Origin: Candidatus Stahliibacteriota bacterium
Lineage (GTDB): Bacteria; Hydrothermota; Tepidihabitantia; SM23-42
Assembly: GCA_030602565.1 (NCBI GenBank)
Contig: JAUVZL010000008.1
Span: 1 to 61,880, forward strand
Reading direction: 5' to 3'
Length of the DNA: 61,880 nucleotides
Shown: one piece after another, positions 10,568 through 54,800 of the stretch
Layout: each line of letters starts with the position of its first letter
How positions within the stretch are numbered: position 1 is the stretch's first letter
Notes under the pieces: generated by a model
What the model saw: the letters and a program-made list of their open reading frames with translations, nothing else
What the model was told of the DNA's origin: nothing
Database searches by the model: none
Made by a program: the position numbers and the translations under genes

Positions 10568-11131
10568 TTATTTGGGTCGATTTGTGAGTAAGGGAGTTCC
10601 TTCATCACTTAAGGTATAGTATACCTCCTTGCGGTATTGTGCCGGCGCATATCTCGATATGATATAGTCAACGTATTCCACGGTTTCCGGGATTGACGGT
10701 ACACGATTCAACTTCCTCACAATCCCTGGCCCGGCATGATATGCAGCAAGGGCTAATTCCAAATCTTCGTCAAAGATGTCGAAAAGATCGCGCAGATAGG
10801 AAACACCACCCCTGATATTTTCCCAGGGGTTATAAGCATCTTCCACGCCAAGAATCTTGGCAGTTGCCGGCATCAATTGCATGAGCCCAATAGCACCACT
10901 TTTGGAAACTGCATCGGGGTTGAATTGAGATTCTTTTTCAATCACCAATTTGACCAATTGCTGATCAATGCCATATTCCTGGCAGTAATGGCGTATTATA
11001 TGATCATAGTCATCGTAGACAACCACCTGTTTAGCTGCGTCAGTTTCTTCAAGCTGCGGGATATTCGACAGCATAACCTCACCATCTTCGCAGTTAATCG
11101 CTATTTGGACTAAGAGCATCAGAATAAACAT
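10568..11131 (-). CDS. Lytic transglycosylase (SLT domain), exported
   Basis: This 187-residue protein cleaves the glycan strands of peptidoglycan. It has a short hydrophobic N-terminus (residues 1-13, a signal peptide with Cys14 nearby) and then a Slt-type lysozyme fold: catalytic Glu67 in EKESQFNPDAVS, the GLMQLMPATA motif, and AYHAGPG further on. The start has no Shine-Dalgarno sequence. Its ATG is 33 nt from the T of a TTGACA box with TAATAT between, so the transcript is probably leaderless. The -35 box overlaps a repeat arm. Confidence 0.9.
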   Translation of the reverse strand: MFILMLLVQIAINCEDGEVMLSNIPQLEETDAAKQVVVYDDYDHIIRHYCQEYGIDQQLVKLVIEKESQFNPDAVSKSGAIGLMQLMPATAKILGVEDAYNPWENIRGGVSYLRDLFDIFDEDLELALAAYHAGPGIVRKLNRVPSIPETVEYVDYIISRYAPAQYRKEVYYTLSDEGTPLLTNRPK

Positions 11132-11136
11132 ATAAA

Positions 11137-11164
11137 ATATTATACGAAATTATTATCTTGTCAA
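11137..11164 (-). promoter_or_regulatory. Leaderless promoter of the lytic transglycosylase gene
   Basis: On the minus strand: TTGACA (11164-11159), 16 bp, TAATAT (11142-11137), 5 nt, ATG (11131). An overlapping TATAAT would give a 14-bp spacer and 7 nt to the ATG. The -35 box overlaps the arm of the family C repeat that starts at 11160. Confidence 0.65.
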
Positions 11165-11364
11165 CCCCGTTAGATAAGATTTCTGAAAAAGACCAGAGAT
11201 CTTCGATTACAACGATGATAATTGCTGAAATATCACTGCAATCTTTCTGTTATCACCGTAATCTTGAGAGCAATGAATATTTTTTCAGAGCTCTCTAAAT
11301 AACACACTGTTACACGATCAAAGAGCATAAGCATATTTGAAGTTCGGTATCTAATGGGGTCAAC
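11160..11364. repeat. Inverted-repeat element, family C, copy 1
   Basis: The left arm GTCAACCCCGTTAGATA (11160-11176) and right arm TATCTAATGGGGTCAAC (11348-11364) are near-perfect inverted repeats (14 of 17 pair) around a 171-bp interior with no convincing gene. The same core, TATCTAACGGGG, recurs at 24573-24584. This has the shape of a small non-autonomous mobile element. Confidence 0.6.
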
Positions 11365-11374
11365 AGTGAAATAA

Positions 11375-11410
11375 GAATTCGTGTTCGTGATTCGTATTTC
11401 GTATTCGTAT
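11375..11410. repeat. Short TTCGT repeat array
   Basis: Five units of the form (A/G)TTCGT follow each other with slight length variation. The same motif makes up the larger inverted repeat at 38356-38430. It directly abuts the family C right arm and lies 3' of the cyclase gene. Confidence 0.55.
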
Positions 11411-11441
11411 TTTTTTTGAAACGGTACTAAATATTTGAATT

Positions 11442-13118
11442 TTATTCGTCATTGGGTTTTTGGCATTTCATGCCTATTACTTCGTAAATTTCAACCGGTC
11501 TACTTATATTTTTCATCTGGACTGGCGGTAGTTTCCTCGCTTTCACAAAATCCCTGGTCAGTTCATAGGTGGATTTGCTGATAAGTATCTGACCTGGCAG
11601 CGCAGTGTTTTCAAGCCGCGAGGCAAGGTTCACAGCCCGCGAAACCACGGTGTATTCCATCCGGTTAATATTACCGATATTACCCGCGATCACTTCGCCA
11701 GTGTGAATACCAATCCCTATCTCAAAAGCCTCGACTTCAGCAATTTCCATCTTCTGCCGCCAAGCCTCTCTTAAGTCAATCACGCGTCGCTTCATATCCA
11801 GGGCTGCCTTTACCGCCCTCAATGGATCGTCATCATGGGCGACCGGAGCGCCAAAAATCGCCATAACACAATCACCAATGTATTTATCAAGGGTTCCTTC
11901 GTGAATAAAGACGATATCCGTCATGTTGCTCAAAAAGTCATTTAGTATCTCGACGGCGACAAGAGTATCTATCTTCTCGGCTAATGAGGTGTAGCCGCGG
12001 ATATCACAAAAAAGAATGGTCGCAATCCGGACCTCACCAACTAAAGCCATACCTTCTTCAGCAGCCATGATTTTTTCAACGACTGTTGGTGAAAAAAATC
12101 GTTGGAGACGATCCCTTATTTTTTCTTCCTTCTTTATTTTTTCATAAAGTTGGGCATTCTCAATAGCAATGGCTGCCTGGTTAGCAAATGATATCATGAA
12201 TTCTATATCACCCTGATCAAAATGCCTTTGGGTAACCGGGTTATCAAGATAGATAGCTCCGATCCTACCTTTTTCCTTAGCAACAAGCGGCGCGCAGATG
12301 ACTGCGCCGATTGCGTAATTTATAACGCTCTCCTGAGCCCTGAACCTTTCATCGCTCATCGCATCTTCAGTGGCGATTACCTGACCAGTCTTGTAAGTTT
12401 CCCAGGCAATGGTTTGACTAATGCCCGTTGTTGTACTCGGTTCAAGTTCACCGCCCATGTTCCGGGCAACCTTAACTTTCAAATCTTTGGATACCTTATC
12501 GTAGAGGATAATGAACCCGCGGCGCGCCTGGAGTATTTTCAATGCCAAATCCATGAGCAGGTTCAGCAGTACGTTAAGGTCAAAGACAAAATTAATGATT
12601 TTGCCGACTTCGCACAAGGTCGATGCGATCTCCTTGGATTTTTCAGCTTCGCTGAACTTATCCTGGTTCTGAGCAATACAGGTCTTAAGTTCATTAAGGG
12701 AACGTAAAACATCTTTCTTCGCCGCGCCTTTTGATAGCTGTTTTTTTATCGACTCTATCTTCTCGGCAAAGTCAAAACCGCCACCAAACCGGCGGCTTGG
12801 TGTTTTCCGTTCAGGGATATGGTCAAGAGTTTTTTCATCGACAAAGGTGATTACTGTATTGCCGACTTGTATCTCATCTCCATAACTGAGCTGCTTTTCC
12901 ACAACCCTATCACCATTAACAAAAGTTCCATACCGACTCTTGCGGTCCTTGACTATGTATTTATTACCCTTTCTCTCGATTTCGATATGGAACCGTGATA
13001 CAAAAACGTCATCAATGACAATATCATTGTCATCGCGACGGCCCAAGGTCATATGGTCTTTGTGCAGCTTAATGACCTGGGTTTCGTCGTCTGGCTTATG
13101 GATCAGAAATGTCGCCAT
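11442..13118 (-). CDS. FHA-GAF-class III adenylate/guanylate cyclase
   Basis: A 558-residue cytoplasmic signalling protein. The N-terminal FHA domain (about 1-95; GRRDDNDIVIDD, SRFHIE, NGDRV) binds phosphothreonine. A helical linker and a GAF domain (~165-335) follow, then a class III cyclase domain (~350-545). Both metal-binding Asp are present (FCDIRGYT and KYIGDCVMAIFG), as are the K of KYIG, the T of EYTV, and the N and R of AVNLASRLE. Those favour ATP as substrate and activity. The usual I-G-D-x-V-N reads V-S-R-A-V-N, a departure next to the active site. It is the last gene of the operon led by the Ser/Thr kinase, and its FHA domain is a natural reader of that kinase's output. Confidence 0.92.
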   Translation of the reverse strand: MATFLIHKPDDETQVIKLHKDHMTLGRRDDNDIVIDDVFVSRFHIEIERKGNKYIVKDRKSRYGTFVNGDRVVEKQLSYGDEIQVGNTVITFVDEKTLDHIPERKTPSRRFGGGFDFAEKIESIKKQLSKGAAKKDVLRSLNELKTCIAQNQDKFSEAEKSKEIASTLCEVGKIINFVFDLNVLLNLLMDLALKILQARRGFIILYDKVSKDLKVKVARNMGGELEPSTTTGISQTIAWETYKTGQVIATEDAMSDERFRAQESVINYAIGAVICAPLVAKEKGRIGAIYLDNPVTQRHFDQGDIEFMISFANQAAIAIENAQLYEKIKKEEKIRDRLQRFFSPTVVEKIMAAEEGMALVGEVRIATILFCDIRGYTSLAEKIDTLVAVEILNDFLSNMTDIVFIHEGTLDKYIGDCVMAIFGAPVAHDDDPLRAVKAALDMKRRVIDLREAWRQKMEIAEVEAFEIGIGIHTGEVIAGNIGNINRMEYTVVSRAVNLASRLENTALPGQILISKSTYELTRDFVKARKLPPVQMKNISRPVEIYEVIGMKCQKPNDE

Positions 13119-13157
13119 TTAATGCTTCTGAGCGCGTGGTTTTTAGATGTAATCTGA

Positions 13158-13490
13158 CTACGGCCAGATACCCATATCATCAAAATGGGCAGTAGCTACT
13201 CCTCCCATTTCCCATGATTTAACCCACAGTCCTATCGAACCTCCGTCGAAAGTGTCGTCGGTTAACTCATACCGACCAGTGACCTCACTTTGTGTCTCTT
13301 TAACGACAATGCTATCCTGGATCAACTTGATGGCCGCACCCTCAATCGGATGGTAATTAATGCCGTAGACTGTTCCGCCGAGATCGACTTTATCAGGGTT
13401 TTTAGGATCATAGGGGTTATCGCGTTCCGGCTTCAGGCAACTCAGCGTACTGAGTAGCAATATCGGAATGAATATAAGTAGCTTTTTCAT
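13158..13490 (-). CDS. Small lipoprotein with carboxypeptidase-regulatory-like fold
   Basis: The 110-residue protein starts with a lipoprotein signal (lipobox LSTLSC, Cys18) followed by the NPYDPKNPDK stretch common in secreted proteins of FCB-type bacteria. The rest (GGTVYGINYHPIEGAAIKLIQD ... TGRYELTD) reads as a CarboxypepD_reg-like beta sandwich, a probable structural or adhesive module. AAGGAGG sits six bases before its ATG. It lies between the TPR protein and the cyclase in the same operon. No enzymatic function is implied. Confidence 0.75.
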   Translation of the reverse strand: MKKLLIFIPILLLSTLSCLKPERDNPYDPKNPDKVDLGGTVYGINYHPIEGAAIKLIQDSIVVKETQSEVTGRYELTDDTFDGGSIGLWVKSWEMGGVATAHFDDMGIWP

Positions 13491-13502
13491 CTTATCCTCC
13501 TT

Positions 13503-14324
13503 CTAAAAAGCAATTTTGTAGCCAATTTTTATCTGATCTATGCCTGGCGTGCAATACAATCCTTTGTCCTGATCGAGCAATGACCATGCAGTGGCTGGTT
13601 TTGTAAAAAAGACATCGTAGATATTATATGCATAGACAACGCTGAACAACGCCAGGTTAATAGCGGTGATATTATGCCAGACCCTGTATTTTCTATAGGC
13701 ATCATCGAATTCGTATTGAGGTGCTCCTCTTGGAATGTCCAAATATCTGTTATGGGCTCTTTCATTCATGATCACCGAAAAAACCGATGTACAAAATGTT
13801 ATGCCCGAAGCAATCATGATTCTCTTGCCCTTGCTCGAATAGCCTTTGTACATCTGGCCCCAGCCTGGTACGCAGCAGGAACGCATGAGCGCCTTTGTTT
13901 TGCTTACCCTTTTCTTTCTTGCTGGCTTTGGAGGTTCAGGCTCGACCGGGGTTGGTTTAATTTTCATTTCAGCTTGGGTTTCTTCGAACACCTTGATGAT
14001 CTTCGGCGAAACAAAGGTTGGGTCGAGCGTTATTGTAGGATCGAGCATCAGTGCTTTTTTGAACTGCCCCTTTGCCTTGTCTTTATCACCAAGGGCAACA
14101 TAGCTAAATGCCAGGTATTTATGGTATTCAACCTGGTCAGTAGATTCAAGCTGTTTTAAGAACTGAAGCGCACCCTCCAATTCACTGATAGCTGATTCAT
14201 ACTCTCCATTGTTATAATAGAGCTTTGCCCTCTGCAGCATATGCTCAAGCGAGTCCTCAGATACCTGAGCCAAAGCAAACCCCACCAAGACAAGGGTCAG
14301 TATCAAGAAAGTCTTTTTGAACAT
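13503..14324 (-). CDS. Exported TPR / DUF5683-like membrane protein
   Basis: The 273-residue protein has a signal peptide (residues 1-19, ending ALAQ), two or three TPR-like helix pairs (~25-105), a Pro/Lys-rich linker, and a membrane region opening with SCCVPGWGQMYKGYSSKG. That is the P-G-x-G-Q-x-Y motif of DUF5683 and TM2-like proteins. Two hydrophobic segments follow (~175-190 and ~220-240). It probably belongs to the envelope side of the kinase operon. AAGGAGG precedes the ATG. Function unknown. Confidence 0.75.
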   Translation of the reverse strand: MFKKTFLILTLVLVGFALAQVSEDSLEHMLQRAKLYYNNGEYESAISELEGALQFLKQLESTDQVEYHKYLAFSYVALGDKDKAKGQFKKALMLDPTITLDPTFVSPKIIKVFEETQAEMKIKPTPVEPEPPKPARKKRVSKTKALMRSCCVPGWGQMYKGYSSKGKRIMIASGITFCTSVFSVIMNERAHNRYLDIPRGAPQYEFDDAYRKYRVWHNITAINLALFSVVYAYNIYDVFFTKPATAWSLLDQDKGLYCTPGIDQIKIGYKIAF

Positions 14325-14335
14325 TAATCCTCCTT

Positions 14336-16438
14336 TTATTTAGATTTTAACTCCACATATTTTTTCAACATCTTTCCAGCCGGGATATCTATTTGCTGTT
14401 CCGCGGTTTTATATGATGGGTTTATCAATTTTAATGTGTGTTTTCCTGGTAACAGCTTTATCGGTTTAGCAATCGGCGTTGTTTCGTAGTACTTACCATC
14501 AATGTAAACATCAGCCCATGGTTTAACCGTTATTTTCAAAAATCCATCTTTTGCGTCAAGTTTAATATTCATATTGACGGTCTGATTGGGCGCAAAGATG
14601 ATTTTCTTTTTCCAAACTTTGAAATTAGGGTTTTCCAGTTTCACCGAATGAGTACCAGCAGGTACTTTTATTGGTTGAGCAATGGGCGTAGTTTCTACGT
14701 ACCGGTCGTCAATATATATTTTTGCCCAGGGTTCAACGTTTATTTTCAGATATGAAAACTGTTTTTCTGCTACTGGCGTACTTACTTTGATTAGCGTCAC
14801 ATTTATAGTTGCTTGTTCTGCCGCAGTAACATCGCTGCTTACCTCTTCAGGTTTATAGCCCTTTTTCAGAAGTTTAACTCGGTGTTTGCCTTCAACCACA
14901 TTTTTAAGCGTACATGGCGTTTTCAAACTGGTATTGACATTATCGAGAAAAACCGCAGCTCCGGGCGGTCGTGACTTCACAAGAATACTACCGTATGCAA
15001 CTGGCTCGCTTGCTTTTACTAAAACCGGGTTAAGGCTAACTGTATCACCCTTTGTGACCTCAAGCGTTTTGACATATTCAACATACCCGGGTTTGACTAA
15101 TTTTACTGTGTGTTTGCCATTCACAAGGCTATTGAGCAATGCCGGCGTTACTATCTGCAGGTTCTTGTCATCGAGGTATATCAAGGCACTCTCTGGCGTC
15201 GATTTGATATCCATAGCACCAAAGGACATTGTTGTATCTTCAGGTAGTACATGCGTTTTCCGGCGCTTTGTTAAGGAAGCAAACAAAACCACCGCGATTA
15301 TCAAAACTGCAATGACTATGCCGATTGGCAGGAGCGGCAACTTACGACGCTCTGGCGCTGCCTTTTTCTGCTTAGGCAAGGGTGTGTCTTCTTTCCGCTT
15401 CTTGAGTTCTGTCAGGTGTTTCTTTGCCTGTCCATCATCAGGCGCAAGATGTAGAACTTTGGTGAACTCGCTGATCGCATCATCGATTTTCGCATAGCCA
15501 AGGGTCATAAAATAAAGACCGCGTTCAAAATGCTTCTTTTTCCGCCGTTCAATAAGATCTTTGAAAAGCGCATCTGGTTTACTAACAAAACCACCGATCT
15601 GCTTTCTGGTGACTTCAACCTTGTTCCTCTTGAAATATGAATGGATTATCTCACTGACTGCGGTGATTTCCTGGTACCGGTGGTCGAGGTCTTTCTCAAG
15701 CATTTTTTCGATAACATCATTGATTTCCTTATTGATCAGAGGGTTTGCTTCAAGCGGTTTTGGCGGTTTGACCGTAATGATTTCATGGATGACTGATGAA
15801 TAATTCTCGCCACAAAATGGTTTGCTACCAGTTATCATCTCGTACATAACCACACCTAAAGAGAAAATATCTGTCCGGTTATCTACCTTCTTACCGGTTG
15901 CTTGTTCTGGCGACATATAAGCCGGTGTACCGACGATTGACCCGGTTATCGTAACTGAGGTTAAATCCTGCGCCTGGGCAAGCCCGAAATCAGCAATCTT
16001 TACCGTACCGTCATAACCAATCATGATGTTTGCGGGTTTGATATCACGATGGACCATACCTCTTTGGTGGGCATGAGCGAGCCCATTGCTGATTTCATAA
16101 GCAATAGAAAGTGCAATATCAAGCGGCACGAATTTAACAGAACTCACTAATTCCTTAAGACTACGACCATCAATATACTCCATCGCGATAAAATATACAT
16201 CTTCGGCTTTTCCATAGTCGATAATATTGACGATATTCTCATGTTTCAGATTTGCCGCCGCTTTTGCTTCACGCTCAAACCTCGTAATGAAATTCTTGTC
16301 CTGGGCAAGATGACCGTGGAGTATTTTCACCGCAACGATCCGGTCGAGTGAAACTTGAACTGCTTTATATATTGCTGCCATACCACCGGTGGCGATGAGT
16401 TCTTTTATTTGAAAGTTTCTGACCGTACGATTTATCAT
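14336..16438 (-). CDS. Membrane Ser/Thr protein kinase with four PEGA repeats
   Basis: The 700-residue protein is a bacterial eukaryotic-like (Hanks-type) kinase. Its domain spans ~10-265 with all key residues: VAVKIL Lys, HRDIKPAN catalytic loop, ADFGLA and GTPAYMSPEQ. A helical/TPR-like stretch (~300-355) follows, then one transmembrane segment (~375-395), then four PEGA beta domains outside (two of type IKSTPESALIYLDD and two of type PWAxIYIDxxYxETTPIAxPI). PEGA domains usually bind cell-wall or surface ligands, so it likely senses the envelope and signals inward. It leads the operon with the TPR protein, lipoprotein and FHA-cyclase, and the FHA domain is a plausible partner. Confidence 0.93.
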   Translation of the reverse strand: MINRTVRNFQIKELIATGGMAAIYKAVQVSLDRIVAVKILHGHLAQDKNFITRFEREAKAAANLKHENIVNIIDYGKAEDVYFIAMEYIDGRSLKELVSSVKFVPLDIALSIAYEISNGLAHAHQRGMVHRDIKPANIMIGYDGTVKIADFGLAQAQDLTSVTITGSIVGTPAYMSPEQATGKKVDNRTDIFSLGVVMYEMITGSKPFCGENYSSVIHEIITVKPPKPLEANPLINKEINDVIEKMLEKDLDHRYQEITAVSEIIHSYFKRNKVEVTRKQIGGFVSKPDALFKDLIERRKKKHFERGLYFMTLGYAKIDDAISEFTKVLHLAPDDGQAKKHLTELKKRKEDTPLPKQKKAAPERRKLPLLPIGIVIAVLIIAVVLFASLTKRRKTHVLPEDTTMSFGAMDIKSTPESALIYLDDKNLQIVTPALLNSLVNGKHTVKLVKPGYVEYVKTLEVTKGDTVSLNPVLVKASEPVAYGSILVKSRPPGAAVFLDNVNTSLKTPCTLKNVVEGKHRVKLLKKGYKPEEVSSDVTAAEQATINVTLIKVSTPVAEKQFSYLKINVEPWAKIYIDDRYVETTPIAQPIKVPAGTHSVKLENPNFKVWKKKIIFAPNQTVNMNIKLDAKDGFLKITVKPWADVYIDGKYYETTPIAKPIKLLPGKHTLKLINPSYKTAEQQIDIPAGKMLKKYVELKSK

Positions 16439-16449
16439 AGTTATGTAAG

Positions 16450-16477
16450 AGTATATTAAAATAATATTTCAAGTCAA
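16450..16477 (-). promoter_or_regulatory. Promoter of the kinase operon
   Basis: On the minus strand: TTGACT (16477-16472), 16 bp, TATACT (16455-16450), then 11 nt to the ATG at 16438. The predicted leader is about 5 nt with no ribosome site, so nearly leaderless. Confidence 0.65.
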
Positions 16478-28650: not shown

Positions 28651-28678
28651 TTGACACAAGTTATATATTCCATATAAT
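28651..28678 (+). promoter_or_regulatory. Leaderless promoter of murJ
   Basis: TTGACA (28651-28656), 16 bp, TATAAT (28673-28678), 5 nt, ATG (28684). No Shine-Dalgarno sequence. Confidence 0.75.
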
Positions 28679-28683
28679 TGCCC

Positions 28684-30240
28684 ATGCCGGATATCACAAG
28701 AGGGGTGCGGGCATTTACTATAGGTACAGCAATCAGCCGGGTCCTGGGACTGATTCGCGAGTCGGTCTTTGCCTACCTTTTCGGCGCGGGTATGACGACC
28801 GATGCCTTTAATGCAGCATTCCGCATCCCCAACCTATTCAGAGATCTCTTTGCAGAAACTGCCCTGTCCGCCGCCTTCATACCTGCCCTGACTTCGGCAA
28901 AACAAAAAGGTAAGGAACAGCAAAACCTTCTTGCCAGCAATGTATTCAATATTCTGGTAATTGTCGTCGGCATAACAGTAGCACTTGGCATTATCTTTTC
29001 ACCGTATATCGTAAAGGTCATTGCATTTGGATTTGGCGCAGTACCGAATAAGCTCAACCTTACCGCTTGTTTGACCACAGTCATCTTTCCTTTCTTGCTT
29101 TTCATTGCCTTTGCTGCCTGGGCAATGGGTTATTTGAATACTGAACAGGAATTCTTCATACCGTCACTGGCTCCTGCTTTTTTCAATGTTCTTTCGATCG
29201 CTACACCAATAATTCTCTATGCGTATTTGGTAAATCGCGGCATCGAACCGATATTTGGCATGGGGATCGGTGTAACTCTGGGTGGTTTGATGCAATTCTT
29301 AATACAAATCCCAAGGCTCTATAATAAAGGGTTTCGCTACCGGCTTTATATTAATTTCAAAGATCCCGGCTTCAAGAAAATTATCCCACTATTTATCCCC
29401 GTAGCAATGGGTCTTGCTGCCTCAAGGATAAATGTTACCGTGGATATTTTCCTAATATCACTCCTTGCCGAACGCAGCATGACCTGGCTCAACTATGCGT
29501 TTCGGATAATGCACTTACCCCTGGGTCTGTTTGGCATAGCGGTTGGTACTGTTGCCTTACCCACGATTTCAAAATATGTCGTTCAAGGAAAGCACGCTGA
29601 AGCAAAAACCACATTGTTTGATTCGCTTAAGTTCGTTTTTTTTCTCACTATTTCAAGCGCGGCGATAATTGCTTTTCTCTCTCATCCAATTACGCGTCTC
29701 ATCTATGAACGTGGCATGTTCACACGCGTTGACACCGATGCAACAAAGATAGCTTTAATTCTCTATATCATCGGCATACCTTTTGTCGCCGGGGTGCGAA
29801 ATGTCGCAGCGCTTTTTTATGCATATAAAGATTCTAAAACGCCGATGTATGCAAGTTTTGTTGCGGTCGGCGTGAATGTAATCTTAAACCTGGTCTTGAT
29901 GCGTATCATTGGATTCCGGGCATTTCCTTTGTCAACGACAATATCATCGTTTTTAAACCTTGCAATCTTATTCTATTTCCTGCCGCGCAAAGTCGGTAAG
30001 TTCAGATTATTGCCATTAGTAAAATACTTTGTCTTGCTTGGGATCGCAGCTTGTGCAGCCGGCTTAGCTGCAATGGTCATCAATGACTTCCTTGTTAATG
30101 CAATAGGTCTTGCCTTTGTCAATCAGCTATTGAACCTTCTTATTAGCGGAATTATTGCCTTGGTGATTTTCTATAGTCTGTGCCTGATTCTCGGTCTTGG
30201 TGAAGCCAAAGATTTTCTAAAACGCCTGGTTAAACGCTAA
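28684..30240 (+). CDS. murJ: Lipid II flippase MurJ
   Basis: The 518-residue integral membrane protein of the MOP superfamily flips the peptidoglycan precursor lipid II across the inner membrane. It has about 14 hydrophobic helices and the MurJ signatures at the N-terminus (SRVLGLIRESVFAYLFGAG-x-x-x-DAFNAAFRIPNLFRDLFAE) and in helix 7-8 (SRINVTVDIFLISLLAERSMTWLNYAFRI, LPLGLFGIAVGTVALPT). Arg-rich loops match the charged central cavity. An in-frame TTG at 28678 lies on the last base of the -10 box and is rejected in favour of the ATG at 28684, which fits the leaderless geometry. Confidence 0.95.
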   Translation: MPDITRGVRAFTIGTAISRVLGLIRESVFAYLFGAGMTTDAFNAAFRIPNLFRDLFAETALSAAFIPALTSAKQKGKEQQNLLASNVFNILVIVVGITVALGIIFSPYIVKVIAFGFGAVPNKLNLTACLTTVIFPFLLFIAFAAWAMGYLNTEQEFFIPSLAPAFFNVLSIATPIILYAYLVNRGIEPIFGMGIGVTLGGLMQFLIQIPRLYNKGFRYRLYINFKDPGFKKIIPLFIPVAMGLAASRINVTVDIFLISLLAERSMTWLNYAFRIMHLPLGLFGIAVGTVALPTISKYVVQGKHAEAKTTLFDSLKFVFFLTISSAAIIAFLSHPITRLIYERGMFTRVDTDATKIALILYIIGIPFVAGVRNVAALFYAYKDSKTPMYASFVAVGVNVILNLVLMRIIGFRAFPLSTTISSFLNLAILFYFLPRKVGKFRLLPLVKYFVLLGIAACAAGLAAMVINDFLVNAIGLAFVNQLLNLLISGIIALVIFYSLCLILGLGEAKDFLKRLVKR

Positions 30241-32843: not shown

Positions 32844-33557
32844 CTAAGCGACCCGGCCAATCCTCATCAGCCGAATCGATTTCCATTGCCATACTTTTAT
32901 GATATCCCAAAGTGACCGGGCTTCACGGCCCAGGTCAAAAGAGAAGTATATAAAAAGCGGTTTGCCCTTGAGGTTCTTCTTATGCAAAGGACCCCAGAAC
33001 CTTGAATCCATTGAATTATCACGGTTATCACCCATGACAAAAACATAATCATCAGGTACTACAACTGGGCCGAAATTGTCCCTTACATGGATCTTCAAGA
33101 TATCATAGAGCTCAGCTTGTTCCCATGCCCGCTGATAGAGCTTGCGGTCTAGGTTGACCGGTTTATACACATTATAATCAGCATGTCGGGTATAAGGCTC
33201 TGATATTTTTTTGCCATTAATATACAACACCTTATTTATTACCTGGACAGTATCACCTTCAATGGCAACACAACGTTTCACAAAATCCCGTTTCTCGAAA
33301 GGATATTGAAAAACGACAATTTCACCACGTCGGGGCAATCTTCCTGGAATCAATGGGATCTGATGAACTGAAAATGGAACCGGAATTTTGACACCATAGA
33401 TAAAGCGGTTAACGAGCAAAGCATCGCCCACCAACAAGGTTTTCTCCATCGACGGTGTGGGTATTACATATGCCTGCACGAAAAATGCCCTGAGAACCAA
33501 AACCACCGCGATAACGATTATCCAGGTTACTATTTCCCGTTTGATCTTATCCTTCAT
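32844..33557 (-). CDS. lepB: Signal peptidase I
   Basis: The 237-residue membrane protease removes signal peptides. One N-terminal transmembrane helix (~10-28) precedes the catalytic Ser36 in PTPSMEKTL and the general-base Lys94 in DFVKRCVAIEGD. GDNRDNSMDSRFWG is the conserved C-terminal box. The TTG at 33563 is part of the -10 box. The ATG at 33557 lies 33 nt from the T of TTGACT, the leaderless spacing, and is chosen as start. Confidence 0.95.
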   Translation of the reverse strand: MKDKIKREIVTWIIVIAVVLVLRAFFVQAYVIPTPSMEKTLLVGDALLVNRFIYGVKIPVPFSVHQIPLIPGRLPRRGEIVVFQYPFEKRDFVKRCVAIEGDTVQVINKVLYINGKKISEPYTRHADYNVYKPVNLDRKLYQRAWEQAELYDILKIHVRDNFGPVVVPDDYVFVMGDNRDNSMDSRFWGPLHKKNLKGKPLFIYFSFDLGREARSLWDIIKVWQWKSIRLMRIGRVA

Positions 33558-33562
33558 AGGCA

Positions 33563-33590
33563 ATTATAATGCGTTTTGCACTGAAGTCAA
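33563..33590 (-). promoter_or_regulatory. Leaderless promoter of lepB
   Basis: On the minus strand: TTGACT (33590-33585), 16 bp, TATAAT (33568-33563), 5 nt, ATG (33557). No ribosome site. Confidence 0.75.
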
Positions 33591-33665: not shown

Positions 33666-33693
33666 TTGACTTATCCATCATTATATATAAAAT
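33666..33693 (+). promoter_or_regulatory. Promoter of tRNA-Val
   Basis: TTGACT (33666-33671), 16 bp, TAAAAT (33688-33693). The tRNA begins 17 nt later. The region between this and the lepB promoter (33591-33665) shows nothing else. Confidence 0.6.
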
Positions 33694-33710
33694 AGAAAAT
33701 GCAATGTTAT

Positions 33711-33786
33711 GGGCGGTTAGCTCAGCCTTGGTTAGAGCGTCTGCGTGACATGCAGAAGGTCACCCGTTCAAGTCGGGTACCGCCCA
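33711..33786 (+). tRNA. tRNA-Val (anticodon GAC)
   Basis: A full cloverleaf folds by eye. The acceptor stem is GGGCGGT with ACCGCCC (discriminator A at 33786), D arm GCTC/GAGC, anticodon stem TCTGC/GCAGA with loop GTGACAT (anticodon GAC at 33747-33749), and T arm ACCCG-TTCAAGT-CGGGT. The CCA end is not encoded (ATG follows the discriminator). The next gene starts 55 bp downstream and has no promoter of its own that I can see, so it may be read from the tRNA promoter. Confidence 0.96.
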
Positions 33787-33841
33787 TGTTTTCCCATCGA
33801 GGCTATTTTGGACAGAAAAACCCATCACCAGGAAAAGACCA

Positions 33842-43788: not shown

Positions 43789-44292
43789 CTATTCAACCAG
43801 TTTTATCGTTAGATAACCAGTTAATATCCCCAGTACTGCGCCAATAATGACATCCGTTGGATAGTGCTTTTTCAAATAGATGCGAGAAAAGCCTACGGTC
43901 GTTGCGTACAGGTACATCGGCACTTTCAATTCGGGATAATGATGAGTCAAAATGACCGCATGAGTGAAGCAAAAAGTAGTATGACCTGACGGAAATGAGG
44001 AGTTCCAACGTGGGTAATACCCTTCTGGTCGCTGACGATTTACGAAATATTTAAGAGGCAGGACTGTCGCCCAATTCACAATAAAACCAACGAGGTCTTG
44101 CTTGCCTAAATTATCGCGGTCAAGAAAAAAGGAGAAGGCTGGATTGACGGCGTTGAACTCTGGTCTCGACACAAAAGAAACACCATTCATCAAACAAGCC
44201 ATGGGCTTAGCTTGCCAGCTTTCACTCATTGTCTTGTAAGCATTGCCCTCAAACCTGCATAATGCCTGGCTGATAACGAACAACAGAAGCAT
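43789..44292 (-). CDS. PAP2-family membrane phosphatase
   Basis: The 167-residue protein carries the three acid phosphatase motifs: K-Y-F-V-N-R-Q-R-P, PSGHTT, and SRIYLKKHYPTD with catalytic His and Asp. It has three or four membrane helices. Members dephosphorylate lipid phosphates such as undecaprenyl or phosphatidylglycerol phosphate. A naive reading starts at TTG 44325, but that TTG is the -35 box of the promoter. The ATG at 44292 has the exact leaderless spacing and starts MLLLFVISQALC, a plausible signal or first helix. Confidence 0.88.
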   Translation of the reverse strand: MLLLFVISQALCRFEGNAYKTMSESWQAKPMACLMNGVSFVSRPEFNAVNPAFSFFLDRDNLGKQDLVGFIVNWATVLPLKYFVNRQRPEGYYPRWNSSFPSGHTTFCFTHAVILTHHYPELKVPMYLYATTVGFSRIYLKKHYPTDVIIGAVLGILTGYLTIKLVE

Positions 44293-44297
44293 AGCAT

Positions 44298-44325
44298 ATT
44301 CTATTCTGAAACAATGATATGTCAA
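44298..44325 (-). promoter_or_regulatory. Leaderless promoter of the PAP2 gene
   Basis: On the minus strand: TTGACA (44325-44320), 16 bp, TAGAAT (44303-44298), 5 nt, ATG (44292). Because 33 nt separate the TTG and the ATG, the TTG is in frame and mimics a start codon. Confidence 0.75.
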
Positions 44326-49300: not shown

Positions 49301-50121
49301 TACTCAAATTTCAATCCTAAATTTGTGACTACTCTTTCTATAATTGTATCGTCAATACTTTTTTTCCTCTGCATATAACCCTCTAAAAGGGCATTGTCGC
49401 AAGTTATGTTTACAAGCCTCGGTTTGCCATCTGAATAGCGACAGATCAAATCAACCGCCCTGGGCGTAAAAATTTCATTTGTCACGCCAGCAATACCGAG
49501 CCGATGACCTATATAAGCTCTTATCGTATCACTACCCATTGACTTCAACTTGACCTTAACCGCGATGCGCTGATACAGAGCACGATTGGATGTCAGGTAC
49601 GACTCCAGCTCAGGCAACCCACTGAGGATAAACGAAATCAATCTGGTATCAGCTATTTCAAGATTCAGAAGTCCTCTAATCTCTTCTAATATCTCAGGAC
49701 TCGTAATTTTGTTTGCCTCATCGATAATAATAACTGTCTTTTCGTTTCTACGATATATCTCATTGAGCCTTTGAGAAATTCGACTTATTATTTCAGTTGT
49801 CGAAGAGCCAAAATCTCTAAGGCCAACAAGGTTTGCAATTTTAGTGAAAAGCCAACCCGGCGCGAATTCAGAATGGGTCAGGACGATCAAGCCAACCTGA
49901 TAGTTCCCTTGTGCATAAAGTTCACTGAGAATCTTACGCACCAGGGTTGTCTTGCCAGTCCCTATATCACCCAACAGAACTGCCAACCCTCGCGTGCCGC
50001 GTGCCGCATGGACCAGGTATTCGCGCGCCAGAGCATGCTGAGGGGAATTGAAATAGAACTTTGGATCAGGATGATTAGTAAATGGTTCAAATTTGAAACC
50101 GTAAAATTCCTGATAGCCCAC
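49300..50121 (-). CDS. ExeA/GspA-type AAA ATPase, copy 2
   Basis: The 273-residue paralogue of copy 1 opens MGYQEFYGFKFEPF, then FYFNSPQH, Walker A GDIGTGKTT, Walker B VIIIDEANKI, GLPELE and RLVNITCDNALLEG. The two copies are the same along their whole length in layout, and each pairs with a TPR gene: a duplication of a two-gene unit. AGGAGG precedes the ATG. Confidence 0.88.
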   Translation of the reverse strand: MGYQEFYGFKFEPFTNHPDPKFYFNSPQHALAREYLVHAARGTRGLAVLLGDIGTGKTTLVRKILSELYAQGNYQVGLIVLTHSEFAPGWLFTKIANLVGLRDFGSSTTEIISRISQRLNEIYRRNEKTVIIIDEANKITSPEILEEIRGLLNLEIADTRLISFILSGLPELESYLTSNRALYQRIAVKVKLKSMGSDTIRAYIGHRLGIAGVTNEIFTPRAVDLICRYSDGKPRLVNITCDNALLEGYMQRKKSIDDTIIERVVTNLGLKFE

Positions 50122-50134
50122 TTATCCTCCTGTT

Positions 50135-52063
50135 TTAGAGAAAAGCGATATTTTCGCCTTTTCTTTCTTCAGTATCAGGTTCTTTTTTGGGAAGATCCTT
50201 AGATAGCTTTTCTGACTGGGTTGAAGGTGTTTGGTCAATTATCGTCGGATACATCTCCTCGGCTGGTTCCTGTATTATTTCCTTTGGTCCCATCTTAGCT
50301 GGCTGCACAAAAGGTTCAGGCTGCGCTGGCGGTGATATGGATATTTTCTGAGGAGGTATAGTCTTATCAGATTCTCTTTTTGGTTTTTCAAATGTTATAT
50401 CCTTACCACCCATTAGTGTATACATCTCCTTTACGTCTTTATACTCAGGGTTAATGCTAATAATCCGTTCGGTTTCCCTTAATGCATTGTCAAAATCTCC
50501 TAACCCCTCATAAGCAGACGCGAGCAGATAACGTAACTCGACTTTCTGGGTTTCAGAAATCTCTTCATACAATAAAGTAGGAGCAATCACTTTTTTGGCT
50601 TCACTATAATGACCCAGCTTGATAAGCGACGCACCATTTATCTCAAGCGATAACGGCCATGTACCCTTTTCTTGCTTAACGTCAACAACATAGCTCAAGG
50701 CAGTCGCATATAAGCCAGCATCAAAAGCCAGCTTTGCCAGGGTCATCTTTTTCTTAACATCAGTTTCCTCCCACACTATTGCTTTTCTGAAATCATCAAA
50801 TTCCTGGGCAACCTCGAAACTTGGTATACTTGGTGCCTTAGCTTCATCGAGTAAGAATTCTATATCCGCTATCTGCCCCTCTAATTGTGGCACATCATGT
50901 CCTTTTTCTACACTTGGCTCAACTTCGTCAGAAGGTTCTTGTGTTGTAGTATCTGTCGCAGCAACAAAACCCTCAATCTCTCTGTCCAGATCCTCGAACA
51001 TCTCCATTGCTTGTTCATCTCCCGCTGTTTGTTCTGGAGTTTCGGGTTGAGCAGTTTCTTCTTCTGCCTTCGGTTCACTAACAGTCTGGTCGATAATATC
51101 TTCAACACTGGGCTTTAGATCTTCCTCTATTTCAGCTTGAGGAAACGCTTTCTCAGTCTTTGGTTCGCCTGCTTCGGTCGGAATGGTTTCTTCAACTTGA
51201 GATTCTGGCACCGCTTGTTCCACAACCTCTTCAGTGGCGGCTTTAGCTTCGACAGGTGCACCGCCACTTTTTAACTCATTAATTCTGTTTATCGCATCCT
51301 TGTTGTTTGGATCGATCTCAATAATTCGGTTCAGTACATTTATTGCCTCTTCGGTTTCATTGCTGTCGACCAAATCACTTACCGCCTTTTCAAATTCAAC
51401 TATCGCCTCATCCTTTGAGCCAATCTCATAGAGTAGGTTACCCAGTTCAATACGGCTTTTAGGATCGAGTTCCTCACCGCCATCTGTTTGTGGAAACAAC
51501 TTGTCGACTTCCTCAAGTATTTCCTGATCACCTGCCTCTTCAGCAAGAGATTTGACTTTTTTCAATTCATCCTCGGCATCCTGTAACCTGCTGGTTGAAT
51601 AGAGAACCTTAACAAAGGAGAATCGCAAAGCTAAATTTTTTGGCTGCAGCTCAACTACTTTGCGCAACCCAGATATGAACATAGCATTTTCCTTGTTGTC
51701 AATCGCCCATGTGCACAAATCAAGTATTGTGTTGATCGCCTTATCAGGTAAACCATAAAATCTATAAAGATCAGCCAGACGTGCGATAATTTCCTCATTG
51801 GATTTATCTATTCCTGTAATTTTCTCCAAACAAAGTATCGCTTCGGCGTATTGATTCGCATTGGTGTAGTAGTCACTAGCACTTTCATACCGCTGAATAG
51901 CCTCGGCATCTCTGCCCAATTTTAGAACCAAGTCTCCAGAGAGCTCCACGGCTCTCGCATGTTTAGGGTCATCGCTCAAGATCCGGCGCAGTATTATCTG
52001 AGCCTTTTCAAAACTTCCGTCTTCTATATATTCTCTGCCTTTATCAAGAAGATCTACTTCCAT
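50135..52063 (-). CDS. TPR-repeat protein, first gene of the ExeA operon
   Basis: The 642-residue cytosolic protein has N-terminal TPRs (~5-140), further TPRs (~205-270), a long acidic, Pro-containing linker (~275-400), another TPR block (~440-550), and a Pro/Lys-rich tail. The architecture copies that of the 47528-49300 protein (TPR, acidic linker, TPR, basic tail), supporting a shared origin. It begins at a leaderless ATG. Confidence 0.82.
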   Translation of the reverse strand: MEVDLLDKGREYIEDGSFEKAQIILRRILSDDPKHARAVELSGDLVLKLGRDAEAIQRYESASDYYTNANQYAEAILCLEKITGIDKSNEEIIARLADLYRFYGLPDKAINTILDLCTWAIDNKENAMFISGLRKVVELQPKNLALRFSFVKVLYSTSRLQDAEDELKKVKSLAEEAGDQEILEEVDKLFPQTDGGEELDPKSRIELGNLLYEIGSKDEAIVEFEKAVSDLVDSNETEEAINVLNRIIEIDPNNKDAINRINELKSGGAPVEAKAATEEVVEQAVPESQVEETIPTEAGEPKTEKAFPQAEIEEDLKPSVEDIIDQTVSEPKAEEETAQPETPEQTAGDEQAMEMFEDLDREIEGFVAATDTTTQEPSDEVEPSVEKGHDVPQLEGQIADIEFLLDEAKAPSIPSFEVAQEFDDFRKAIVWEETDVKKKMTLAKLAFDAGLYATALSYVVDVKQEKGTWPLSLEINGASLIKLGHYSEAKKVIAPTLLYEEISETQKVELRYLLASAYEGLGDFDNALRETERIISINPEYKDVKEMYTLMGGKDITFEKPKRESDKTIPPQKISISPPAQPEPFVQPAKMGPKEIIQEPAEEMYPTIIDQTPSTQSEKLSKDLPKKEPDTEERKGENIAFL

Positions 52064-52068
52064 AAAAA

Positions 52069-52096
52069 ATTATAACCTAATTCATAACTTTGTCAA
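52069..52096 (-). promoter_or_regulatory. Leaderless promoter of the TPR-ExeA operon
   Basis: On the minus strand: TTGACA (52096-52091, inside the end of ftcD), 16 bp, TATAAT (52074-52069), 5 nt, ATG (52063). Confidence 0.75.
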
Positions 52097-53587
52097 GAAG
52101 ATATTTTCGATATTTTCGTATAGATTTCCCTCTTGTTTTCTTAGCGAATCAAGCTCTGTCTTAATGGATTCGTTGAATACTGCATCGGTTATCGAACTGA
52201 GGTTTATCAAGACGTTAACCCGGGCAGCCATAAACGCACTGTGGAGCGAGTAAAGCGCCACACCAACATCAGAAATCGCGTTCTTTAAACCTTTCTGAGC
52301 AAGCGTCTTGGCATAGGGGTAGACAAAAAGGATTTTCTTACAGACCTCAAACGGCACTTGAGCTGCATGTTTGTAGGCATTTTGCACGGCAATCTGCTTA
52401 TCCTCCTTATCCTTATCTGTCTCATCAGGTAACTTGAACGCTACCAAAACTTGATCAAAAGCCGACTTGTCTTTATTGATGAATTTGTAGAACTCGTAGG
52501 TAGTTAGTTTTAAAAATCCGTGGAAATCCAGCAGTTCTTCATCTTTTGTCTTGTTCACGGTGATACCGGTAACCATTGAGAGTAGCGCCGTACCGAGAGC
52601 AGCTTCGAGCGCAGCAACACTGCCGCCACCTGGTGTAGGTCGTGCCAGAGCCAAAACATGCAGGAAATCCATGATTGATTGCTTTGAACCTTTCCCGTGG
52701 AGCTTGTACTCCAGAATCTGATCTTCGGTAAAGCGGTCCAGCTGTAAGTAGTAAATCGCTGTATCGATCAATGCCTTTTCAGGAACCAAACCGACAATCT
52801 CTGATTCTTTGATGCTGATGCCGTACCTTTCTGCCTCGCGCTTTACTGTTTCGAAAACTCGATGCAATGGTGTCTTTGTATAGTCTGTCATGTTACAGGA
52901 GATCTGAGCACGATTCTCTTCTTTCAGCATGAAACCAAGTGATTTAGTATACCGGTATCCACCACTGCCAAACCTGATTGCCTTGGCAATTTTCTGGGCA
53001 ATCGAAACATCTGTCGTATTGAGGTTTATGTTAAAAGCAATAAGGGGAAACCGGGCACCAATTACCGTGGCACCGGCAGTTGGATGGAGTTTTGGCTCGC
53101 CAAAATCTGGTCGACGTTCAGGGTTGGTTTCGATCTCATCTCTCAACCCTTCGAATTCACCTTTTCTTATCGCCGCAAGATTCTGCCGGTCAGGTCGAGT
53201 TGCCGCAGCTTCGTAAAGGTAGACTGGTATCTTCAACTCCTCAGCAACCCGCTTGCCTAACCGTTTTGCCAGCTCAACGCACTCACGCGTTGTAACGTTG
53301 CTGATCGGTACAAACGGGACAACATCAGTAGCGCCCATTCTCGGATGCTCACCTTTATGTTTGGTCAGGTCAATCAACTCTGATGCTTTCTTGATACCTC
53401 TAAATGCTGCTTCCAGTACGGCCTCAGGTTCACCTACGAATGTCACAACTGCACGATTATGGTCAGCATCTTTTTCTTGGTCGAGCAATTCTACACCAGC
53501 ACTCTTTATTTCAGCTAAAATCTGATCGAGTCTTGCCTGATTCCTCCCCTCGCTAAAATTGGGGATGCACTCAACTATTTTTTCCAT
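52082..53587 (-). CDS. ftcD: Bifunctional glutamate formiminotransferase / formiminotetrahydrofolate cyclodeaminase
   Basis: The 501-residue fused enzyme takes the formimino group of N-formiminoglutamate onto tetrahydrofolate and deaminates it to 5,10-methenyl-THF. The formiminotransferase half (1-~295) starts VECIPNFSEGRN and has DADHNRAVVTFVG, KGEHPRMGATDVVPFVP and GARFPLIAFNINLNT. The cyclodeaminase half (~305-500) has ARPTPGGGSVAALEAALG. It overlaps hutI by 17 nt, so histidine (or imidazolone) breakdown feeds one-carbon metabolism. hutH and hutU are not here. Confidence 0.95.
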   Translation of the reverse strand: MEKIVECIPNFSEGRNQARLDQILAEIKSAGVELLDQEKDADHNRAVVTFVGEPEAVLEAAFRGIKKASELIDLTKHKGEHPRMGATDVVPFVPISNVTTRECVELAKRLGKRVAEELKIPVYLYEAAATRPDRQNLAAIRKGEFEGLRDEIETNPERRPDFGEPKLHPTAGATVIGARFPLIAFNINLNTTDVSIAQKIAKAIRFGSGGYRYTKSLGFMLKEENRAQISCNMTDYTKTPLHRVFETVKREAERYGISIKESEIVGLVPEKALIDTAIYYLQLDRFTEDQILEYKLHGKGSKQSIMDFLHVLALARPTPGGGSVAALEAALGTALLSMVTGITVNKTKDEELLDFHGFLKLTTYEFYKFINKDKSAFDQVLVAFKLPDETDKDKEDKQIAVQNAYKHAAQVPFEVCKKILFVYPYAKTLAQKGLKNAISDVGVALYSLHSAFMAARVNVLINLSSITDAVFNESIKTELDSLRKQEGNLYENIENIFLTKL

Positions 53588-54767
53588 ATATTATCCTTCC
53601 TTTTTTTATAGTATACCTGACAATATCCTCGCCAAAATAATACGGAATTTTCTTGTAATTATCAACGTTAAATATGACAAAATCAGCTTGTTTACCGGTT
53701 TCAATGCTACCGATTCGGTTAAACAAACACAATGCCCTGGCGCCGTATTTGGTAGCTCCCAGAAGAGCATCTTCAACATGCATGCCATAGACAATACAGG
53801 CGAGCGCAATAATCTTGGGCATTGAATAAATCATACACGAACCAGGGTTATAATCTGAAGCGAGCGCTGGATGACAGTACAGTTTCTTATAGGTTCTAAC
53901 ATTCGGTTTCTTCTTGAACTGTAAAAAAAGTGTTGCGCCAGGTAGCAAAGTAGGAACAACACCTGCTTTTTTCATTGCTCTTATCGCCCCCTTTGTTGAA
54001 TACTCCAGGTGATCAGCTGATGCACATTTCAATTTCGCGGCAAGATATGCACCGTGAATATCAGCGAATTGATCCGCATGTATTTTAAGCCCAAAACCGT
54101 ATTTTTTCGCACTCAATAAAACCTTCTCGCTCTCGCGCCTGGTAAAAGCAATCTTATCACAAAAAATATCACAAAAATCAGCTAACTTTGCTCTGGCAAC
54201 TTTGGGGATAATCTCTTCAATGACAAGATCTATATAGTCCCGCCGCTTCATCTGATCAGGGATCGTATGAACCAGATAGGTTGGTACAATATCAAGTTCT
54301 GAATCCTTTTTCAGCCGTTTTATCACTCTGAGGGTTTTTATTTCCTCGGCAGGCGACAAGCCGTAGCCACTCTTGATTTCAACGGTCGTAGTGCCGTGTT
54401 TGACAAGGTTTTTCAACCTTTTCATGGCTGACTTGTACAAAATATCTTCACTTGCCTGATGCGTCATACGCACCGTACTGGCAATACCACCGCCAGCTTT
54501 GGCGATCTTTTCGTATTTGACACCGGTAACGCGCATCGCAAATTCGTCTTCGCGCGAACCCCCGTAGACCAAATGGGTATGAGAATCTACCAACCCCGGA
54601 CATACTACGCAACCATTAGCATCGACTACGTTTCTTGCTTTATCACTCTTTATTTGACCAACTTTTCTGATCTTACCATTTTCAACGAGTACTGAAGCGT
54701 TTTTCAAAATACTGAGTCCTCTTTTCATAGTCAGTATCTCTGAGGCGTTGCGAATCAACATAGCCAT
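53571..54767 (-). CDS. hutI: Imidazolonepropionase
   Basis: The 398-residue amidohydrolase opens 4-imidazolone-5-propionate to formiminoglutamate. It has GLVDSHTHLVYGGSREDEF (H-x-H), EIKSGYGL, LKIHADQF and SDYNPGSC, all family marks. The first ATG (54767) has exactly 5 nt after a TAGAAT -10 box, so the leaderless form starts there rather than at the next ATG two codons on. Confidence 0.95.
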   Translation of the reverse strand: MAMLIRNASEILTMKRGLSILKNASVLVENGKIRKVGQIKSDKARNVVDANGCVVCPGLVDSHTHLVYGGSREDEFAMRVTGVKYEKIAKAGGGIASTVRMTHQASEDILYKSAMKRLKNLVKHGTTTVEIKSGYGLSPAEEIKTLRVIKRLKKDSELDIVPTYLVHTIPDQMKRRDYIDLVIEEIIPKVARAKLADFCDIFCDKIAFTRRESEKVLLSAKKYGFGLKIHADQFADIHGAYLAAKLKCASADHLEYSTKGAIRAMKKAGVVPTLLPGATLFLQFKKKPNVRTYKKLYCHPALASDYNPGSCMIYSMPKIIALACIVYGMHVEDALLGATKYGARALCLFNRIGSIETGKQADFVIFNVDNYKKIPYYFGEDIVRYTIKKGRIIYGKNS

Positions 54768-54772
54768 CGATT

Positions 54773-54800
54773 ATTCTACATTATTTTTCAATTATGTCAA
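54773..54800 (-). promoter_or_regulatory. Leaderless promoter of hutI-ftcD
   Basis: On the minus strand: TTGACA (54800-54795), 16 bp, TAGAAT (54778-54773), 5 nt, ATG (54767). Confidence 0.75.

What the first reader, a model, noticed from the sequence alone, without database searches (positions are those of the whole stretch)
11131..54800. Fixed-geometry leaderless promoters: TTGACx-N16-[-10]-N5-ATG at six operon-leading genes
At the lytic transglycosylase (ATG 11131), murJ (28684), lepB (33557), PAP2 phosphatase (44292), the TPR-ExeA operon (52063) and hutI (54767), the start ATG lies exactly 5 nt after the -10 box and 33 nt after the first base of the -35 box. None has a Shine-Dalgarno site, while genes inside operons have AAGGAGG. 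Transcription would start on or next to the A of ATG. pbpC has TATAAT-N5-ATG, trkH N6, the GT39-like gene N8 with GTG, and the kinase N11. Leaderless genes with a -10 box just upstream are known from Deinococcus and Actinobacteria, but such an exact fixed frame (33 nt = 11 codons) across cell-envelope genes is striking.
Basis: partly seen in the sequence, partly recalled or inferred. Interest (0 to 1): 0.78.

Follow-up and report, generated by a model that had tools for sequence, protein, structure and literature searches.

The report
Leaderless gene starts in WOR-3 bacteria
In this uncultured WOR-3 bacterium many genes seem to be transcribed starting at the start codon itself, because a complete promoter sits 5 to 8 bases before it; the arrangement recurs through the genome and its relatives, and its spacing differs between branches of the phylum.

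Summary
The six sites are real: each ATG follows TTGAC-N17-TANNNT-N5 without a Shine-Dalgarno. The whole genome holds 101 such sites against 3 for the reversed pattern. The window belongs to a WOR-3 / Ca. Stahlbacteria (Caldifarciminota) MAG. The best reading: ordinary sigma70-type promoters making leaderless mRNAs.

The distance is not fixed: N4/N5/N6/N7 = 11/101/92/47 genome-wide, a sharp lower edge then a decay, so 33 nt = 11 codons is coincidence. A hydrophobicity proxy shows no envelope bias. The TPR gene is not operon-leading.

Two things go further. The 16-bp spacer is the genome's general promoter spacing, also at 6 of 7 recognisable tRNA/tmRNA promoters. And geometry varies across 147 phylum genomes: 17/N6 leads in many families, 16/N6 in others, and N5 is common mainly in the window's class. 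Homologous murJ and hutI genes of near families keep N5-N8.

E. coli polymerase prefers to start 7 bp below the -10, so frequent N5 predicts starts at 6 bp in this clade. No RNA data exist; leaderlessness is inferred.

The parts
11132..11164 (-). Promoter of the SLT lytic transglycosylase gene (10568-11131): -35 TTGACA 11159-11164, -10 TAATAT 11137-11142 (a TATAAT overlaps it 2 bp upstream), N5, ATG at 11131
28651..28683 (+). Promoter of murJ (28684-30240): -35 TTGACA 28651-28656, N16, -10 TATAAT 28673-28678, N5, ATG at 28684
   Evidence: kept at N5 (7) or N6 (6) in 13 of 13 WOR-3/Stahlbacteria loci with a 5' end (2 further loci lack the 5' end)
33558..33590 (-). Promoter of lepB / signal peptidase S26 (32844-33557): -35 TTGACT 33585-33590, -10 TATAAT 33563-33568, N5
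44293..44325 (-). Promoter of the PAP2 phosphatase gene (43789-44292): -35 TTGACA 44320-44325, -10 TAGAAT 44298-44303, N5
52064..52096 (-). Promoter of the TPR gene (50135-52063): -35 TTGACA 52091-52096 inside the 3' end of ftcD, -10 TATAAT 52069-52074, N5; an internal promoter, not operon-leading
54768..54800 (-).
   Evidence: kept at N5-N8 in 21 of 21 fetched f1-f2 relatives with a 5' end
52082..53587 (-). ftcD (formiminotransferase-cyclodeaminase), second gene of the operon, overlaps hutI by 17 nt and has an SD-like AAGGAAGGA; contrast within one operon
33666..33693 (+). Same promoter type (TTGACT-N16-TAAAAT) for tRNA-Val 33710-33787; the ATG at N5 is chance

Best explanation
The housekeeping sigma70-type RNA polymerase of this WOR-3 lineage recognises TTGAC[A/T]-N16-TATAAT. 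At roughly a quarter of operon-first genes the start codon (ATG, less often GTG, hardly ever TTG) has been placed inside the polymerase's start-site window, 6 to 9 bp below the -10 (N5 to N8). Transcription then begins at or within about three bases of the A of ATG; the mRNA has no real leader and no Shine-Dalgarno site and is presumably started by 70S ribosomes on the 5'-terminal AUG, while other genes use SD sites and the intact anti-SD. The 16-bp spacer is a general trait of promoters in this clade, not of leaderless genes. Shown by computation: motif, spacing, start-codon coincidence, conservation in two genes, phylogenetic spread, intact anti-SD. Inferred: where RNA begins and how ribosomes start.
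For: (1) Whole genome, spacer 16: N4 11, N5 101, N6 92, N7 47 hits; reversed-pattern controls 1, 3, 2, 4. (2) 793,809-base sample: ATG counts N0-N4 3-6, N5 43, N6 31, N7 18, N8 10, N9 4; reversed sequence 0-3; GTG peaks at N5-N6, TTG does not. (3) 62 of 73 ATG hits at N5-N8 that fall on a start candidate of a called gene are exactly the start chosen by coding statistics alone; 37 of 50 N5 ATGs open an ORF of 80 aa or more, against 1 of 14 at N0-N2. (4) Fitted promoter model: 117 of 454 operon-first genes (106 of them at N5-N8), 4 of 295 inner genes, 7 in a control with the starts of the first genes shifted 75 nt. (5) murJ: 13 of 13 WOR-3 relatives with a 5' end keep it, 7 at N5 and 6 at N6. 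hutI: 21 of 21 f1-f2 relatives plus own, d = 5 (11), 6 (4), 7 (1), 8 (6), with d searched from 3 to 9. ftcD in the same operon has A/G-rich SD-like sequence instead (by eye). (6) Pyrimidine at -1 in 37 of 48 N5 genes, p = 0.0002 against one half, as expected at a Y(-1)R(+1) start; one half is a crude background. (7) 16S 3' end carries GGATCACCTCCTTTC. (8) Six of 7 recognisable tRNA/tmRNA promoters, of 17 genes examined, have spacer 16.
Against: No RNA 5' end or protein N-terminus is known for this uncultured lineage. The -1 pyrimidine preference is not clear at N6 (16 of 28), so N6-N8 transcripts could carry 1-3 nt leaders. Of 113 ATG hits at N5-N8, 36 open an ORF shorter than 80 aa; and 85 of 202 ATG hits at N10-N40 also open long ORFs, so leadered genes seem to use the same promoters. 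The 40 sampled stretches came from contigs already known to hold an N5 hit; N5 density there is about 1.5 times the genome's, so the one-quarter estimate is somewhat high. Seven of 7 hutI loci of other families (f3, f6, f10; 45-49% identity) have no TTGAC box there, one of them a TATAAT at N9. Six more distant murJ homologues lack it.
Confidence: 0.9

Rival explanations
1. Near-leaderless: the polymerase starts at one fixed place below the -10, so N5 genes are leaderless while N6-N8 genes carry leaders of 1-3 nt that ribosomes tolerate.
For: The ATG count falls from N5 to N8; the -1 pyrimidine signature is clear at N5 but not at N6.
Against: hutI homologues switch among N5, N6, N7 and N8; E. 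coli polymerase itself chooses among nearby positions depending on sequence (PMC5730371, passages). N7 and N8 genes again show mostly pyrimidines at -1 (9 of 12 and 7 of 10; small numbers).
Confidence: 0.3
2. The ATG at N5-N8 is not used; translation starts at a downstream codon or from a longer transcript.
For: For ltg a start 12 nt downstream was preferred by coding statistics in one of two runs.
Against: 62 of 73 such ATGs are the coding-best start; murJ and hutI homologues align to the ATG and keep it at N5-N8.
Confidence: 0.04
3. A dedicated promoter class or sigma factor for cell-envelope genes.
For: Four of the six genes are wall, export or membrane genes by Pfam: SLT, MurJ, signal peptidase, PAP2.
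Against: N-terminal hydrophobic segments: leaderless 21 of 98, other first 74 of 312, inner 81 of 323; the same TTGAC[A/T]-16-TATAAT serves tRNA and tmRNA genes; hutI is an amidohydrolase.
Confidence: 0.02
4. Chance: AT-rich promoters next to ATGs.
For: Some hits are chance, e.g. the tRNA-Val promoter; 36 of 113 N5-N8 ATG hits open an ORF shorter than 80 aa.
Against: 101 against 3; families f22 and f23 of the same phylum (12 genomes) give near-chance counts with the same three patterns.
Confidence: 0.01

Closest known systems
Leaderless genes of Deinococcus-Thermus ('-10 region adjacent to ORF')
   Same: TANNNT box just before the start codon, no SD at those genes, nearly a third of D. radiodurans genes; -10 about 6-7 bp from the ORF (PMC12340547, sections 7 and 12 read).
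   Different: In Deinococcus a -10 alone suffices and an added -35 only raises expression. Here, among operon-first genes picked by the -10 only, a -35 matching TTGACA at 4 or more of 6 lies at spacer 16 in 35 of 52 (N5) and 22 of 33 (N6), against 0-4 at spacers other than 16 and 17. GC is about 41%.
Leaderless transcripts of Mycobacterium tuberculosis
   Same: TANNNT -10, 26% of genes with a primary TSS, purine start with pyrimidine often at -1 (PMC3898074, passages).
   Different: No conserved -35 motif was found there; here the -35 is strong and at a set spacing.
TA-led genes of Zheng et al. 2011
   Same: A -10-like signal about 10 bp upstream of the start marks leaderless genes, found in 207 of 953 bacterial genomes (PMC3160421, abstract and one results section).
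   Different: The groups listed in that section do not name WOR-3 (one genome is given as unclassified); -35 spacing and start distance across one phylum are not treated in what I read.
Variable TSS selection by E. coli RNA polymerase (scrunching)
   Same: Positions 6-9 bp below the -10 are usable, matching N5-N8 here (PMC5730371, passages).
   Different: The E. coli mode is 7 bp; here position 6 (N5) is the commonest place of the ATG, narrowly ahead of 7.

Membership tests
Leaderless (TA-led) bacterial genes | -10-like TANNNT box about 5-9 nt before the start codon at many genes, above chance | tested here: met
Leaderless (TA-led) bacterial genes | Start codon at that place is the true gene start | tested here: met
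   coding statistics 62 of 73; homologues of murJ and hutI; computed, not measured
Leaderless (TA-led) bacterial genes | No SD at these genes while other genes have it and the anti-SD is intact | tested here: met
   six genes by eye; SD match of 5 nt or more in 114 of 323 inner genes against 25 of 411 control; anti-SD; SD absence was not counted over the whole leaderless set
Leaderless (TA-led) bacterial genes | ATG or GTG start, TTG avoided | tested here: met
   ATG 97, GTG 17, TTG 3 of 117
Leaderless (TA-led) bacterial genes | mRNA 5' end at the start codon | not testable with these tools
   no transcriptome; -1 pyrimidine signature only
Deinococcus-type -10-only leaderless promoter | -35 element dispensable or absent | tested here: inconclusive
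   a -35-like hexamer at spacer 16 in 35 of 52 N5 and 22 of 33 N6 genes chosen by -10 only; a minority lacks it; dispensability needs an experiment
Standard sigma70 promoter with 17-bp optimal spacer | Spacer centred on 17 bp | tested here: not met
   strict promoters in own sample: 172 at 16, 18 at 17; family f26 is 17-centred (18 against 2). The 17-bp E. coli optimum is recalled
Envelope-specific regulon | Enrichment for envelope or membrane proteins | tested here: not met
   hydrophobicity proxy only

The most novel reading that the evidence does not exclude
Within one phylum the core promoter has been shortened step by step, from 17/N6 through 16/N6 to 16/N5, and leaderless genes record this because their ATG must sit in the start-site window. 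If so, the RNA polymerase of the window's clade has moved its modal start from 7 towards 6 bp below the -10 and its optimal spacer from 17 to 16, and the leaderless ATG works as a genomic ruler for start-site position in uncultured bacteria. The direction of change is assumed; no tree was built.
Probability: 0.4. Interest if true: 0.7.

Novelty: new variant of a known kind. Interest (0 to 1): 0.56.

Why it matters
Leaderless genes are best known from archaea, Actinobacteria and Deinococcus-Thermus; here they look like a major mode in many families of a phylum known (recalled) mostly from metagenomes, in a genome of 41-43% GC and usually with a full -35. Because translation pins the ATG to the transcription start, genomes alone can show how far below the -10 the polymerase starts and how the spacer changes between branches, a property otherwise measured at the bench. 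It also matters for annotation: start prediction tuned to SD sites may misplace such genes.

Tried and rejected
Rejected: exact 33-nt frame (N6 92 against N5 101 genome-wide); envelope regulon (proxy); chance; spacer shift caused by an insertion or deletion in sigma (own RpoD residues 279-515 align over equal length to a PDB SigA; the f26 RpoD has one residue less in the region before the last helix-rich part, a single pair, inconclusive). From reading I first believed that all murJ homologues were N5 and wrote so in a note; a script corrected this to 7 N5 and 6 N6 (note). Samples of other genomes were uneven: peaks at N5-N6 in G076 (f1) and G058 (f3); at N6 in G054 and G052 (f26); a few genes in G105 and G107 (f10); no clear peak in G117 and G110 (f10), G029 (f21) and G002 (f11), although the whole-genome 16/N6 count of G002 is 22 against 1 for the control. 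G130 (46,118 bases) was used only, without a clear peak, and dropped; L205 (G111) was used only in the f10 pool. Homologues of lepB, ltg, pap2, tpr and trkH were sought in 71 of the loci held and none was found, so conservation was tested for murJ and hutI only. For hutI, 30 loci of 65 genomes searched were fetched and read. No tree of the phylum was built. S1 domains are present (nine matches, one below cut-off; six in one 570-aa frame), which does not discriminate between readings.
Full report
WHERE IT IS. The window is contig C13 of a 2,737,775-base draft genome in 104 contigs. The nearest named murJ relatives (87-93% identity) are records called Candidatus Stahlbacteria or candidate division WOR-3, now the phylum Caldifarciminota in NCBI. 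GC of the window is 43%.

THE OBSERVATION. All six sites read as described. The pattern hits the window 7 times; the seventh is a tRNA-Val promoter. The TPR gene follows ftcD by 18 nt and its -35 lies within ftcD. For ltg two overlapping -10 boxes fit.

MORE THAN CHANCE. In the whole genome, TTGAC-N17-TANNNT-Nd-ATG gives 11, 101, 92 and 47 hits for d = 4, 5, 6, 7; the reversed pattern gives 1, 3, 2, 4. In a 793,809-base sample the histogram is low up to N4 (3-6), jumps at N5 (43) and decays over N6 (31), N7 (18), N8 (10) to N9 (4). The sample contigs were chosen from those with an N5 hit, so its N5 share is inflated (about 1.5-fold in density); the whole-genome figures are the ones to trust. 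The distance is a window with a sharp lower edge, not one exact value.

GENE STARTS. I called 749 genes in the sample plus window from dicodon statistics only. Of 113 ATG hits at N5-N8, 73 fall on a start candidate of a called gene and 62 of these are exactly the coding-best start; 74 open an ORF of 80 aa or more, 36 a shorter one, 3 run off an end. A fitted two-box model marks 117 of 454 operon-first genes (106 at N5-N8), 4 of 295 inner genes and 7 shifted controls; start codons are ATG 97, GTG 17, TTG 3; spacer 16 in 103 and 17 in 14. A stricter classification gives 98 leaderless among 410 operon-first genes. An SD match of 5 nt or more stands before 114 of 323 inner and 105 of 411 operon-first genes, against 25 of 411 in a shifted control, and the 16S 3' end is GGATCACCTCCTTTC.

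CONSERVATION. In murJ the arrangement is kept in 13 of 13 WOR-3/Stahlbacteria loci with a 5' end (of 15 fetched): 7 at N5, 6 at N6, spacer 16 in 12 and 17 in 1. Six more distant homologues (Krumholzibacteriia, Aminicenantes, Melainabacteria, Cyanobacteria) lack it at the aligned position, which in five of them is not an ATG. In hutI all 22 f1-f2 loci with a 5' end (own included) have a TTGAC box, with d 5 (11), 6 (4), 7 (1), 8 (6) and spacer 16 in 21, 17 in 1; one further f1 locus had no aligned 5' end; 7 loci of other families have no TTGAC box there. In the same operon, 22 ftcD loci show, by eye, A/G-rich SD-like sequence instead. Spacing is held within narrow limits while spacer and discriminator sequences change.

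PROMOTERS IN GENERAL. Strict promoters (TTGAC[AT], TA[ACGT][AC]AT) in sample plus window: spacer 16, 172; spacer 17, 18; every other spacer from 12 to 22 at most 7; reversed control 1-6 per spacer. Of the 172, 91 have ATG or GTG at N5-N8. Seventeen tRNA/tmRNA genes were examined; 7 have a good promoter, 6 of them spacer 16 and one 17; ten had none or a weak one. So the 16-bp spacer is not tied to leaderless genes.

ACROSS THE PHYLUM. Three patterns were counted in the same 147 genomes, own included, and averaged by family (counts copied by hand); reversed controls were 0-7 per genome. Means for 16/N5, 16/N6, 17/N6 in the window's class: f1 (23 genomes) 69, 62, 9; f2 (4) 83, 73, 7.5; f3 (8) 56, 96, 17.5; f4 (1) 49, 59, 0; f5 (1) 76, 68, 13; f6 (5) 14, 33, 21; f7 (3) 17, 26, 16; f8 (1) 25, 38, 18; f9 (1) 80, 47, 6; f10 (18) 12, 33, 16. 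Outside the class, for example: f30 (6) 9.5, 44, 15; f11 (5) 3, 27, 11; f12 (4) 4, 12, 28; f16 (4) 3.5, 5.5, 24; f24 (2) 0, 0, 15.5; f26 (5) 2, 1, 13; f37 (5) 2, 2, 20; f31 (1) 34, 76, 16, the one family outside the class with many N5; f20, f21, f17 and f27 low (1-2, 0-1, 3-4.5); f22 (4) and f23 (8) near chance for all three. Leaderless promoters thus look widespread in the phylum with exceptions, and N5 is mainly a trait of the window's class. GC differs among genomes, so absolute counts are not comparable; the ratios are more telling. In the other families the hits were not checked against gene starts except in the samples, which are small. A tree was not built.

MECHANISM. In E. coli the start lies by preference 7 bp below the -10; a passage gives 3, 70, 23 and 4% for what I read as positions 6-9, and starts more than 1 bp upstream or 2 bp downstream of the mode are called rare (PMC5730371, passages). 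N5-N8 puts the A of ATG at 6-9 bp, the same window, but with 6 bp the commonest by a small margin. If translation requires the AUG at the 5' end, this clade's polymerase must often start at 6 bp. The pyrimidine preference at -1 of N5 genes (37 of 48) fits a start on the A; at N6 it is 16 of 28 and unclear. The own RpoD aligns over equal length to a PDB SigA, so no indel there explains the spacer; it has VGEGNN and RVPAHI where the f26 RpoD has IQEGNL and RIPIHM, single sequences and unexplored.

PRINT. No paper in the held library contains both 'leaderless' and 'WOR-3', or 'WOR-3' with 'promoter' and 'transcription start', or 'leaderless' with 'promoter', 'metagenome-assembled genomes' and 'start codon'. 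Searches with candidate-phyla, Stahlbacteria and Caldifarciminota terms listed no paper on promoters of this phylum, but only 20 of 236, 6 of 388 and 4 of 1,050 matches were listed. Two papers, on D. deserti and GeneMarkS-2, were not held, so earlier notice cannot be excluded. A passage in the StartLink paper says leaderless use was predicted in 21.6% of bacterial species (PMC9581028, passages); leaderless genes as such are well known.

VERDICT. The leaderless reading is right and genome-wide; 'fixed 33 nt' and 'envelope' are not supported. The new part is the lineage, the full -35 with a 16-bp spacer, and the change of geometry between branches of one phylum.

Noticed in passing
L040:17428-17499 and seven other places in the sample (L030, L034, L039, L051, L055, L065, L066): Divergent pairs of leaderless genes (ORFs of 80 aa or more on both sides) with 71 to 122 bp between the two start codons, so the intergenic region is little more than two back-to-back promoters.
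   Followed up: partly
L103:667-2226: Own RpoD reads VGEGNN and RVPAHI where the RpoD of f26 (L120) reads IQEGNL and RIPIHM; possibly linked to the changed promoter geometry.
   Followed up: partly
window 52064-52096: The TPR gene has its own leaderless promoter at the end of ftcD, so it may be read both from its own start and by read-through.
   Followed up: no
families f22 and f23 (12 genomes) of the phylum: Near-chance counts for all three promoter patterns, unlike most other families; leaderless use lost, or a different promoter consensus.
   Followed up: no
L045:703-1052: tmRNA call with tag EKAISCRPVSW, an unusual ending (recalled); the tag may be misplaced by the program.
   Followed up: no
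G000:C4:9311-9346 and G000:C75:7963-7998: Two 36-base promoter-start strings differing at one base, suggesting a duplicated or mobile gene.
   Followed up: no
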